Part shown: positions 3,850 through 29,132 of the stretch, one piece after another
Position numbering within the stretch: position 1 is the first letter of the stretch
Layout of the letters: the number at the start of each line of letters is the position of its first letter
Assembly: GCA_025517465.1 (NCBI GenBank)
Contig: JAOPKE010000001.1
Span: forward strand, 806,001-870,000
Length of the DNA: 64,000 nt
Origin: Halobacteria archaeon HArc-gm2
GTDB lineage: Archaea; Halobacteriota; Halobacteria; Halobacteriales; Haloarculaceae
Direction: 5' to 3'
Position numbers and translations under genes: made by a program
The notes under the pieces: generated by a model
Database searches by the model: none
Told to the model about the DNA's origin: nothing
The model's input: only the letters and a program-made list of their open reading frames with translations

Positions 3850-3920
3850 TGCACCGGCCGGGAGTTGAACCCGGATCGTTGGCTTGGAAGGCCAAAGTCA
3901 TGCCATTAGACCACCGGTGC
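3850..3920 (-). tRNA. tRNA-Gly (anticodon UCC)
   Basis: The reverse complement folds completely: acceptor GCACCGG/CCGGTGC, anticodon stem TTGGC/GCCAA with loop CTTCCAA (anticodon TCC), T-arm CCGGG-TTCAACT-CCCGG and discriminator A. Length is 71 nt, with no encoded CCA and no intron. Confidence 0.95.
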
Positions 3921-3936
3921 TCGCTTCGCTCGCACC
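3916..3936. repeat. Hairpin with a TCGCTTCGCTC loop at the tRNA-Gly 5' boundary
   Basis: The stem GGTGC (3916-3920, the tRNA 5' end) pairs with GCACC (3932-3936) around the 11-nt loop TCGCTTCGCTC. The 10-mer CCACCGGTGC that ends the tRNA is repeated at 3966-3975. The same loop class recurs at 27954, 29081 and 29114. Confidence 0.6.
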
Positions 3937-4024
3937 GAGGCTCGCGATTCCTCCGGAATCGCTCACCACCGGTGCACTCACTTCGTTGAAGCGAAGCCTG
4001 TACTTCAGCGTATCCCGTCGTAGT

Positions 4025-20101: not shown

Positions 20102-20183
20102 ATAGTGGTCGTTGTAAGCCCGTACCGGCGTTCGACGTGGCCGGTACCGGCGAACGCCGGTAAAAAGTTACAACGACCACTAT
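20102..20183. repeat. 82-bp nested palindromic element (MITE candidate)
   Basis: Perfect 16-bp terminal inverted repeats (ATAGTGGTCGTTGTAA at 20102-20117 and its complement at 20168-20183) enclose a second perfect 11-bp inverted repeat (20124-20134 and 20151-20161) and the central palindrome CCGGTACCGG (20141-20150). The right end overlaps the first base of the stop codon of the next gene. ACTC lies directly left of the element and again one base beyond its right end, a possible target duplication. It could instead act as a strong hairpin terminator. Confidence 0.75.
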
Positions 20184-26798: not shown

Positions 26799-27735
26799 TC
26801 AGTCGTCGCCCGGGGCCGGCGTCGCCCTGGCATCAGTCGATCGCTCGAGGCGCTCGTCCAGCGAGAACGGCCCCGCACCGAGTGTGAAGATGGCAGAGGC
26901 CATCCCGAACAGCGTGACGTGCGCGAGCACCGGGTCGTCCGGCAGGCCGAACAGCGTCACTGTGAACAGGAGGAACGCCGTCGCGGCGCTCGCGCGGGTC
27001 AGCAGGCCCGCGACGAGCGCCAGACCGACGACGACCTCCATCAGTCCGGCACCCAGCACCCACATCCCCGGGTCGACGGGGACGACGGCGGTCAGGTCGT
27101 ACTTCGCGACAACCTGGAGCGCCCTGTCCGAGGAGCCAAGCTTCTCGACCAGGCCCAGGTAGACGAAGGCGACACCCATCCCCACCCGGAGAATCGTCGG
27201 CACGAATCGTCGATACGGTGCCGTCAGGTCGTCGAGCCACGCCTTCAGGTGGTGGACCGGGTCGACGCGGCCGTACAGGGTCGCGTCACTGGCGGCGACG
27301 TCCTGGAGCATGTCGTCCGCGCTCGGGCGGCCGCCACCGAGGACGAAGACCGCGACGAACCCGGGGAGGTACTCGATGGCCAGCACGACGTCCGGGTTGG
27401 TCGCGAGCGCCCACGAGCGGAAGCCCCAGACTCAGCCGGAGCATCCAGGGGACGAGGTCGTCGTACGTCCCGAGCGTCTCCCGCAGGATCTGAACGTCGG
27501 GGACGGTCGGCCGGTATCGGAGGTACGCCGCCAGCACCGCGACGCCGACCAGCGAAGCGACGGCCACCATCGCGGCGTTGACCGGATCGGAGAGGACGTC
27601 TGACCCGAACGTGACCGCGTCACGCGCCTGACCGACAGGATCGGTGACGTAGTCGACGTGCGCCGCCGCGGTCGGAACGAACCCGCACGTGGCGAGTGCA
27701 ACGACAGCGGCCGCGAACGACGAGCGAGTAGTCAT
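26799..27735 (-). pseudogene. DoxX-family membrane protein gene, broken by frameshift and deletion
   Basis: Two overlapping frames carry the two halves of one protein. The upstream half (27735 to about 27410) has a signal peptide ending AAAHVDYV and a helix (VAVASLVGVAVLAAYL), then reaches WMLRLSLGLPLVG and turns into an Arg-rich tail. The downstream half is in another frame: open as RSWALATNPDVVLAIEYLPG, with a GTG at 27386, continuing through the DoxX helices (TILRVGMGVAFVYLGLVEKL, GAGLMEVVVGLALVAGLL) to 26799. The helices expected between the halves are missing. The second half could still be expressed alone. Confidence 0.75.
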
Positions 27736-27835
27736 GAGCCCGCCTTACCAGCCGCCAGGTTTACCCCATTCGACTTTCGAATCGATGACGTTTCCGCTGT
27801 TTCCGAACCGAACCTGCCGGTCGAGTTCCACCGGC

Positions 27836-28063
27836 AGACTCTCTCCGCTCGTCTCCCGAGCCCAGTCTCACGCTGTTCGACTGGACGCCGAAAGACTCAC
27901 TCCGTTCGTCTTCCGAGCCCGGCCTCGCTGCACTCGGCCGGACGTCAGGAGACTCGCTCCGCTCGTCTCCTGAGCCCAGTCTCACGCTGTTCGACTGGAC
28001 GCCGATAGACTCACTTCGTTCGTCGATCGAGCCCGGCCTCGCTGCGCTCGGCCGGACGCCGGT
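27836..28063. repeat. Tandem array, 4 x 57 bp with ABAB alternation
   Basis: Four exact-length 57-bp units start at 27836, 27893, 27950 and 28007, each opening with AGACT. Units 1 and 3 resemble each other, as do 2 and 4, giving a 114-bp super-repeat. The units fold into hairpins with 11-nt loops, for example CAGGAGAC/GTCTCCTG around TCGCTCCGCTC (27946-27972) and CCAGTC/GACTGG around TCACGCTGTTC (27976-27998). No credible protein is encoded in any frame. Confidence 0.9.
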
Positions 28064-28064
28064 G

Positions 28065-28073
28065 GAATTATAG
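28065..28073 (+). promoter_or_regulatory. TATA box of the GNAT gene
   Basis: GAATTATAG lies 2 bp after the tandem array, centred about 29 nt before the GTG start at 28098, predicting a leaderless transcript. Confidence 0.55.
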
Positions 28074-28097: not shown

Positions 28098-28577
28098 GTG
28101 AGCGTCAACGTCGAATCGAGGGTCGTCGATCGCGGCGACGACGGGTTCGTGGACGCCGCCTGGCAACTCAAAGAACGGATCCGCCAGGAAGACGGCGTCC
28201 TCCGCCAGCGTCGCGGCTTCTTCCGCGACGCCTACCGTCGCTCGCGCGTCTACGTCTACGTCGACCGGACCAACAACACCCTGGTCGGGTTCGCCGCCGT
28301 CCGCTCGGACGGCTACGTTCTCTTCCTCGCCGTCGACCCGGAATACCGCGGCCACGGCTTCGGGAAGCGACTCATCGCCCGGGTCTCCGAGGACTTCGGG
28401 AGCGTCACCTGCCACGCCCGGACGACGAACGACGACGCCATCGGGTTCTACGAACACCTCGGATTCGACGTCCGCCGTCGCATCGACAACTACTACGAGG
28501 ACGGCGGCGACGCGTTCTACCTCTCGCTCGGCGACGACTCCATCCGTGCGAAACTGTCGAAGCTACTCGGTAGCTGA
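28098..28577 (+). CDS. GNAT-family N-acetyltransferase (RimI-like)
   Basis: 159 aa from a GTG start. The acetyl-CoA site VDPEYRGHGFGKRLIARV (Q/RxxGxG/A motif) lies at about residues 77-94, and the late block TTNDDAIGFYEHLGFDVRRR is typical of RimI-type enzymes that acetylate protein N-termini. The substrate is not defined. The TATA box abuts the 57-bp repeat array, so the array may influence this promoter. Confidence 0.88.
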   Translation: MSVNVESRVVDRGDDGFVDAAWQLKERIRQEDGVLRQRRGFFRDAYRRSRVYVYVDRTNNTLVGFAAVRSDGYVLFLAVDPEYRGHGFGKRLIARVSEDFGSVTCHARTTNDDAIGFYEHLGFDVRRRIDNYYEDGGDAFYLSLGDDSIRAKLSKLLGS

Positions 28578-29075: not shown

Positions 29076-29096
29076 ACGGGTCGCTCCGCTCCCCGT
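29076..29096. repeat. Hairpin with a TCGCTCCGCTC loop
   Basis: Stem ACGGG/CCCGT around the 11-nt loop TCGCTCCGCTC, 80 bp before the priS start. Confidence 0.6.
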
Positions 29097-29105
29097 TCGC
29101 TTTGA

Positions 29106-29132
29106 GAAGGTGTTCGCTTCGCTCACACCTTC
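29106..29132. repeat. Hairpin with a TCGCTTCGCTC loop
   Basis: Perfect 8-bp stem GAAGGTGT/ACACCTTC around TCGCTTCGCTC, the same loop as at 3921, 43 bp before the priS start. Confidence 0.7.

What the first reader, a model, noticed from the sequence alone, without database searches (positions are those of the whole stretch)
27836..28063. 4 x 57-bp tandem array with alternating A/B units and paired hairpins
Exact 57-bp periodicity with ABAB alternation implies duplication of a 114-bp unit. Every unit makes hairpins with 11-nt loops. The array ends 2 bp before the TATA box of the GNAT gene and lies downstream of a broken gene.
Basis: seen in the sequence. Interest (0 to 1): 0.55.

Follow-up and report, generated by a model that had tools for sequence, protein, structure and literature searches.

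The report
Haloarchaeal double-hairpin repeat array
The array is four copies of a short two-hairpin DNA repeat that is scattered through most salt-loving archaea sampled; its copies differ in number between close relatives, and its hairpin stems change mostly as matched pairs while the hairpin tips stay alike.

Summary
Window 27832-28059 holds four 57-bp units in ABAB order, and each unit is two hairpins with 11-nt loops. But this is not a local curiosity. The unit is a dispersed element: 44 matches (some overlapping) in the window's own genome, and its covariance model hits 206 of 243 genomes of the order, and only genomes of that order in a phylum sample. Over 81 units, 95.6% of stem cells pair, with 309 two-sided changes against a shuffled mean of 90. 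The 'loop' is itself structured: on the minus strand it reads GA-X-C-GNA-G-X'-GA, containing a GNA-triloop cap published as extraordinarily stable in DNA. The array has four units here, one in the closest relative and none in five other congeners. At another locus the two closest species differ by exactly one 57-bp unit; at a third, a unit is of another type. Best reading: a mobile or at least module-shuffling, non-coding double-hairpin DNA family, in this species partly carried inside an 82-bp MITE that inserts at TGA. A role for the GNAT gene is unsupported. My searches found no published description. DNA-level action and the mobilising agent are inferred.

The parts
27832..27888 (-). 57-bp unit 1 (hairpin A 27832-27858, one stem mismatch; hairpin B 27862-27884). 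The GA-loop strand is minus.
27889..27945 (-). 57-bp unit 2 (hairpin A 27889-27915, one mismatch; hairpin B 27919-27941)
27946..28002 (-). 57-bp unit 3 (hairpin A 27945-27973, 9-bp stem; hairpin B 27976-27998)
28003..28059 (-). 57-bp unit 4 (hairpin A 28003-28029, one mismatch; hairpin B 28033-28055)
27826..28067 (.). array bracketed by a 9-bp palindrome TTCCACCGG (27826-27834) / CCGGTGGAA (28059-28067)
   Evidence: sequence; the RNA and DNA folds and close the array by pairing its two flanks
28066..28073 (+). TATA-like AATTATAG of the GNAT gene; AATTATA is conserved in congeners with and without the array
28098..28577 (+). GNAT acetyltransferase gene (neighbour, not part of the element)
   Evidence: PF13508, 1.2e-14
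26799..27735 (-). broken DoxX-family membrane protein gene (neighbour); its homologue is one open frame in G006, G004 and G003
20102..20183 (.). 82-bp MITE-like element of the family that carries other copies of the 57-bp units in this genome (this copy carries none); absent at the orthologous place in G006
29076..29132 (.). two single hairpins with the same loop type (TCGCTNCGCTC on +) upstream of the DNA primase small-subunit gene; G006 has one more hairpin plus spacer here (63 bp)
3915..3937 (-). single hairpin of the same loop type; one arm is the 5' end of tRNA-Gly(TCC)

Best explanation
The array is a tandem run of a dispersed, non-coding double-hairpin element of haloarchaea. One unit is 57 bp: hairpin A (8-bp stem, 11-nt cap), AGC, hairpin B (6-bp stem, same kind of cap), ACGC. 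The element most likely acts as folded single-stranded DNA. On the GA strand each hairpin is a stem, then tandem G.A mismatches, two base pairs and a C(GNA)G triloop, a cap of the kind known to be exceptionally stable in DNA. When that strand is exposed in replication, repair or cruciform extrusion, the hairpins form. Units are then lost, duplicated, swapped between loci and, in one case seen, flipped in the loop, by template switching, gene conversion or an unidentified hairpin-binding enzyme. In this species and its closest relative some units also sit inside an 82-bp MITE that inserts with a 3-bp TGA/TCA target duplication, and so can travel with it. Shown: dispersal, conserved fold, unit-level differences between sister species, MITE insertion. 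Inferred: DNA rather than RNA action, and the agent that moves the units. No benefit to the neighbouring GNAT gene is needed.
For: Dispersal: 44 matches, some overlapping, in the own genome. Range: 206 of 243 genomes of the order, own included, with model R1; 20 of 148 in a phylum draw, all 20 in the same order. Fold: 81 units, 95.6% of cells paired, 309 two-sided changes against 89.8 shuffled and at most 44 when partners are slid. The apical pairs, not used to select units, also covary (columns 11-17: GC 43, AU 29; 39-45: GC 48, AU 26). Cap: triloop is GNA in 165 of 191 hairpins; with a Watson-Crick inner pair, 157 GNA triloops against 3 GNRA tetraloops. Published cap: GNA or GNNA loop on at least two G-C pairs, GCGAAGC Tm 78 C (PMC4686876, passages). 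Unit change: 4, 1 and 0 units at one site; L015/L181 differ by exactly 57 bp, L017/L183 have equal length but one unit of another type; 21 combinations of A and B arms among 44 units. MITE: 28 of 35 rows have identical TCA or TGA flanks; 7 of the 9 alignable loci lack the element in G006. A unit lies between TIRs in G006 too (C2:370561-370697).
Against: No agent was identified. The genome's one Y1 transposase sits beside a tnpB-like frame (by eye) with no such hairpins nearby. The window array has neither the carrier's terminal repeats nor a target duplication that I could see. Single-unit folding energies are unremarkable: z from -0.12 to -1.65 on the GA strand. The number of further pair types is no higher than in shuffles (34 against 33.3). 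The published DNA cap includes GNNA as well as GNA loops, so the triloop excess is suggestive of DNA, not proof. RNA is not excluded: A.C cells on the TC strand (wobble if the GA strand is RNA) are 30 of 1458 against 9 G.T, and the GA strand is the sense strand of the upstream gene in 92 of 143 intergenic hairpins where 52% is expected. Units in A1 were partly chosen by pairing and loop ends, and the named loci by a pattern, so percentages are inflated. E-values of R1 are rough.
Confidence: 0.55

Rival explanations
1. A structured RNA element. The GA strand is transcribed as part of 3' or 5' UTRs, and the hairpins act as RNA (3'-end formation, stability, or a binding site for a protein that likes tandem G.A pairs). 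Selection on RNA pairing makes the covariation.
For: Strong covariation. GA strand is sense relative to the upstream gene in 92 of 143 intergenic hairpins against 52% expected. GA-strand wobble cells exceed TC-strand wobble cells, 30 to 9. The whole array folds as RNA (plus strand) with z -2.96.
Against: No Rfam match in the window beyond two tRNAs. GNA triloops outnumber GNRA tetraloops 157 to 3, the reverse of what RNA usually prefers (recalled). The orientation bias is mild, and the loci were preselected and not independent. Wobble on the GA strand is 2.1% of cells against 5.05% in 25 tRNAs from the same loci, and GA-strand non-wobble mismatches (43) outnumber wobbles (30) (ARAGORN lists only pairs for tRNAs, so its zero mismatches are by construction). 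Placement differs between loci: promoter side here, 3' ends elsewhere.
Confidence: 0.25
2. A mutational by-product. Quasi-palindromes are perfected by template switching in replication, and tandem copies arise by slippage. Two-sided changes are single template-switch events, not selection, and the array has no function.
For: Sister units 2 and 4 differ by a paired A-T to T-A change and sister units 1 and 3 by a paired G-C to A-T change (sequences printed). One loop is flipped in G006. One arm of a single hairpin is a tRNA-Gly 5' end, and its arms differ in G006.
Against: Template switching alone does not explain one conserved cap and one 57-bp, two-hairpin layout across the order, nor units of other types at the same place.
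Confidence: 0.3
3. A cis-regulatory part of the GNAT promoter (protein-binding palindromes or a supercoiling sensor).
For: It lies about 6 bp upstream of a conserved TATA-like sequence.
Against: Five of six congeners lack the array, yet GNAT and its TATA-like region are conserved. The same units sit beside other genes and elements.
Confidence: 0.05
4. Assembly artefact or chance.
For: None beyond repetitiveness.
Against: Shuffle controls; related units at many loci and in many species.
Confidence: 0.01

Closest known systems
Double-hairpin elements (DHEs) of fungal mitochondrial DNA (Allomyces; Paquin et al. 2000)
   Same: Two adjacent hairpins per unit, suggested mobility, many copies (recalled; the paper itself was not seen, only its citation in passages of PMC5910586).
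   Different: Those are organellar. Here the element is chromosomal and archaeal, with a conserved GNA cap, a 57-bp layout, tandem arrays and an association with a MITE.
Small mobile repeats (SMR-A) and PATEs of Haloquadratum walsbyi (PMC3119063)
   Same: Haloarchaeal, non-coding, mobile; SMR-A elements insert into the near-terminal palindromes of other elements (sections 25 and 28 read; passages), as these units sit inside the palindromic core of a MITE.
   Different: SMR-A are about 110 bp with prominent inverted terminal repeats. These are 57n bp of hairpin modules. No sequence comparison with the Hqr. walsbyi elements was made.
REP/REPIN elements with RAYT transposases (bacteria; PMC3116915, listing and abstract start only)
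   Same: Short dispersed hairpins, often paired, non-autonomous.
   Different: REPINs pair hairpins in inverted orientation (recalled). Here both hairpins have the same loop polarity in 81 of 90 units, stems are free and caps conserved; the one Y1 transposase found sits in an IS605-like setting.
d(GCGAAGC)-type DNA mini-hairpins (Hirao, Yoshizawa)
   Same: The commonest cap, GC-GNA-GC, is this motif (PMC4686876 passages).
   Different: There a laboratory and aptamer structure; here a recurring natural motif extended by tandem G.A mismatches and variable stems.

Membership tests
Double-hairpin element (DHE) | two adjacent hairpins per unit | tested here: met
Double-hairpin element (DHE) | presence/absence or number differs at orthologous sites | tested here: met
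Double-hairpin element (DHE) | fungal mitochondrial location / shared ancestry with those elements | tested here: not met
   chromosomal, order-wide in haloarchaea; no sequence comparison with the fungal elements was made
MITE (window array) | terminal inverted repeats of the 82-bp carrier and a target-site duplication | tested here: not met
   flanks read by eye; the array is bracketed by a 9-bp palindrome whose right half is already present in G004, which lacks units
MITE (82-bp carrier element) | TIR, target-site duplication, too short to code, empty sites | tested here: met
   the L013 copy is an exception (flanks CGA/TGA)
MITE (82-bp carrier element) | parent transposase with the same TIR | tested here: inconclusive
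   ten further TIR sites fetched: six are short pairs, four solo; frames listed for three only and read by eye, no family search run
REP/REPIN | RAYT (Y1-type) transposase not linked to IS605-type tnpB | tested here: not met
   one PF01797 match in the own genome, beside a tnpB-like frame judged by eye
REP/REPIN | hairpins of a pair in inverted orientation | tested here: not met
   same polarity in 81 of 90 units; 8 had one loop outside the TC..TC rule, 1 had a flipped loop beside an off-motif one
CRISPR array | identical repeats separated by unique spacers | tested here: not met
   continuous 57-bp units with no unique spacers
Known RNA family (Rfam 15) | covariance-model match at gathering score | tested here: not met
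   only two tRNAs in the window
SMR-A of Hqr. walsbyi | about 110 bp with prominent inverted terminal repeats | tested here: not met
   units of 57 bp; ends of a unit are not inverted repeats of each other; definition

The most novel reading that the evidence does not exclude
A haloarchaea-wide class of DNA hairpin modules in which the ultra-stable cap (tandem G.A plus C-GNA-G) is the conserved, recognised or self-priming part and the stem is rewritten as a matched pair, possibly copied from flanking DNA in one step (fold-back synthesis). The cap would then be a portable hairpin seed that spreads through genomes without a dedicated transposase, helped by molar intracellular salt.
Probability: 0.2. 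Interest if true: 0.85.

Novelty: new variant of a known kind. Interest (0 to 1): 0.6.

Why it matters
If the reading holds, most sampled haloarchaea share a mobile double-hairpin DNA element with a sharply defined structural cap, which my literature searches did not find described. It would explain recurrent GC-rich intergenic hairpins. It would also offer a natural system, in organisms with molar salt, for testing whether single-stranded DNA hairpins form in cells and drive unit exchange. And it warns that strong 'RNA-like' covariation in archaeal intergenic DNA may come from DNA-level processes.

Tried and rejected
RNA or DNA from wobble: I first took the rarity of G.U as proof of a DNA process. 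Counting both strands weakened this: GA-strand wobble is 30 of 1458 and TC-strand wobble 9, so wobble does not separate RNA from ssDNA. Energy z-scores of single units were unremarkable. Loop inversion as a general feature: only 1 of 90 units. OB-fold gene as universal partner: three annotated plasmid hits have it downstream, but only 4 of the 80 named loci searched encode a relative, so it is one context. tRNA ends as universal templates: 8 of 25 tRNAs have a hairpin with GA..GA or TC..TC loop ends nearby (one of them, L081, not of the motif), and only 3 hairpins touch a 5' end, two of them at the same tRNA-Gly in sister species. Parent transposase of the 82-bp element: not found, search incomplete. 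Viral carriers: no match in viral contigs to one strict pattern. Literature: seven of nine searches aimed at a prior description; in what they listed I saw none of this unit, but listed papers were mostly not opened. The one haloarchaeal paper holding loop letters (PMC11434293) has them in a primer (passages). Searches looked for fungal double-hairpin elements and the DNA mini-hairpin. Most subscription papers are not held.

Rows dropped: A1 uses 81 units, 37 distinct own plus 44 others. From the 58 other-genome rows I left out those whose hairpin spacer is not 3 nt, duplicates, and two hand-removed rows (second units of L104 and L133). Of the 87 loci, 80 were listed and analysed; seven (L141-L147) were not. 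Of the 14 flanks sent, L012 and L020 gave no usable G006 match; of the 12 aligned, L011, L034 and L043 could not be aligned across the element. In one search one element (L058) gives two of the 35 rows.

Full report
OBSERVATION. The finding is correct in substance. TRF gives period 57 (4.0 copies) and period 114 (2.0 copies, 92% matches) at 27836-28061. In hairpin register there are four 57-bp units, 27832-28059, each holding two hairpins with 11-nt loops: A with an 8-bp stem and B with a 6-bp stem. Units 1 and 3 match at 53 of 57 positions and 2 and 4 at 50 of 57; the 57-bp self-match is 0.69 against a shuffle mean of 0.29. The array is bracketed by a 9-bp palindrome, and the next feature is the TATA-like AATTATAG at 28066. 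It lies between divergent genes, upstream of both, so 'downstream of a broken gene' is wrong. The gene is broken: its homologue is one open frame of 368 to 408 residues, stop to stop, in G006, G003 and G004.

DISPERSED FAMILY. Searching the own genome with the array gave 44 matches, some overlapping (40 of 102 candidates scored). In 20 loci fetched around matches, exact 57-bp units recur in 16, in runs of one to about nine. A pattern for hairpin A found 87 stretches in public genomes. The 80 listed and analysed are titled Halobacteria of many genera, except one 'Salinivenus' MAG contig that I did not examine. A covariance model built from 81 units matched 206 of 243 genomes of the order at E<=1e-4, own included. 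In a phylum-wide draw it matched 20 of 148, and every matching row is marked own, same family or same order. Model E-values are rough, and match counts per genome are capped by the number of candidates scored.

ANATOMY. Alignment A1 (37 own and 44 other units, no gaps) with the two-hairpin structure gives 95.6% paired cells (shuffled 76.0%), 309 cells with both sides changed (shuffled 89.8) and a covariation score of 0.544 (shuffled 0.173); slides of 1-3 columns fall to 26-44% paired. One measure does not stand out: further pair types, 34 against 33.3 shuffled. Units were chosen partly by pairing and loop ends, so the paired percentage is inflated. The two apical pairs inside each 'loop' were not used for selection and also covary. 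Read on the minus strand the loop is GA-X-C-GNA-G-X'-GA. In 191 such hairpins from the preselected named loci and the window, X-X' is G-C 101, A-T 61 and C-G 15, and the triloop is GNA in 165. With a Watson-Crick X-X', GNA triloops number 157 and GNRA tetraloops 3. GNA or GNNA loops on two or more G-C pairs are the 'extraordinarily stable mini-hairpin DNA' of Hirao and colleagues (PMC4686876, passages). In 681 kb of preselected loci plus the window, 11-nt loops give 152 intergenic inverted repeats with stems of 7 bp or more against 34-49 for 9, 10, 12, 14 and 15 nt; the 146 at 13 nt are largely the same hairpins counted one pair out. In the unselected window alone the excess is small: 9 with stems of 8 or more against 2.0 expected, 15 with 7 or more against 11.0.

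UNIT CHANGE BETWEEN SPECIES. At the window site the closest relative G006 (GNAT 99% identical) has one unit, whose first loop is inverted and whose second loop is off-motif, and G001-G005 have none (flanks read by eye). Of 14 own-genome elements whose flank was sent to G006, 12 were aligned and 9 could be read across the element. Seven lack it in G006 (L013, L014, L016, L023, L026, L032 and the window's 82-bp copy), with the cleanest empty site at L023, a 139-bp MITE with one unit: the G006 site reads through a single TGA. L015 differs by exactly one 57-bp unit, and L017 has the same length but one unit of another type in each species. Among 44 own units, 15 A-arms and 7 B-arms occur in 21 combinations, which suggests that hairpins reassort singly.

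THE CARRIER. Many arrays lie inside an 82-bp element with TIR TAGTGGTGGTTGTAA, between ACGCC and GGTAC, giving lengths such as 139, 196, 310 and 367 bp. The TIR pattern at up to 3 mismatches has 113 matches in this genome against 4 for the control. At up to 2 mismatches G006 has 67 against 4; G004 has 3 against 3 and G005 5 against 2; G001-G003 have none at up to 1 mismatch. Of 35 rows, 28 have identical 3-bp flanks, all TCA or TGA; in 27 of 35 the triplet is the stop codon of a coding-like frame, against 54 of 1096 control TGAs. The control counts every TGA on one strand, so selection against insertion inside genes explains part of this. The window array is not in such an element.

RNA OR DNA. 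For DNA: the GNA-triloop cap and unit exchange. For RNA: the GA strand is sense to the upstream gene in 92 of 143 intergenic hairpins against 52% expected, and wobble-type cells favour the GA strand 30 to 9. In 25 tRNAs from the same loci 28 of 555 pairs are G.U; the hairpins have 2.1% GA-strand wobble and 43 other GA-strand mismatches. I put the DNA-level element reading at 0.55, template-switch by-product at 0.3 and structured RNA at 0.25; these overlap and are not exclusive.

COMPARISON. The closest precedents are fungal mitochondrial double-hairpin elements, known to me from recall and from a citing passage, and the small mobile repeats of Haloquadratum, which insert into palindromes of other elements (sections read). 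It is not a REPIN by orientation or by a separate RAYT, not a CRISPR, not an Rfam family, and the array itself lacks the carrier MITE's ends. In my searches I saw no description of this unit.

VERDICT. A real, order-wide, mobile or at least rapidly shuffling double-hairpin DNA family, a new variant of a known kind. The open and testable points are the moving agent and whether the cap acts as DNA.

Noticed in passing
window 20102-20183 and about 50 copies elsewhere (L031-L060 and others): 82-bp MITE-like element whose 3-bp flanking repeat is TGA/TCA in 28 of 35 rows and is the stop codon of a coding-like ORF in 27 of 35 (control 54 of 1096 TGAs): a family that tends to insert at TGA stop codons and leaves the stop intact.
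   Followed up: partly
L163:3001-3055, L164:3001-3065, L165:3001-3055 (pNRC200, Salinigranum and Halorientalis plasmids): Matches to the unit lie about 185-255 bp upstream of a gene for an OB-fold DNA-binding protein on three plasmids.
   Followed up: partly
window 3915-3937; L209: A single hairpin of the same cap type uses the 5' end of tRNA-Gly(TCC) as one arm; in the sister species the hairpin at the same place has longer, different arms and a further hairpin lies beside it.
   Followed up: partly
window 29076-29132; L167: Upstream of the DNA primase small-subunit gene, G006 has an extra hairpin plus spacer (63 bp) next to the orthologous hairpin; the spacers are similar but the new stem is unrelated.
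   Followed up: partly
window 26799-27735: DoxX-family membrane protein gene broken in the window; its homologue is a single open frame in G006, G004 and G003.
   Followed up: yes
L167 (G006 unit at the window-array site): Hairpin A of the single G006 unit has its loop in the reverse orientation between otherwise normal arms.
   Followed up: partly
L103: A contig named as a Salinivenus (Bacteroidota) MAG carries a double-hairpin unit; binning contamination or transfer was not examined.
   Followed up: no
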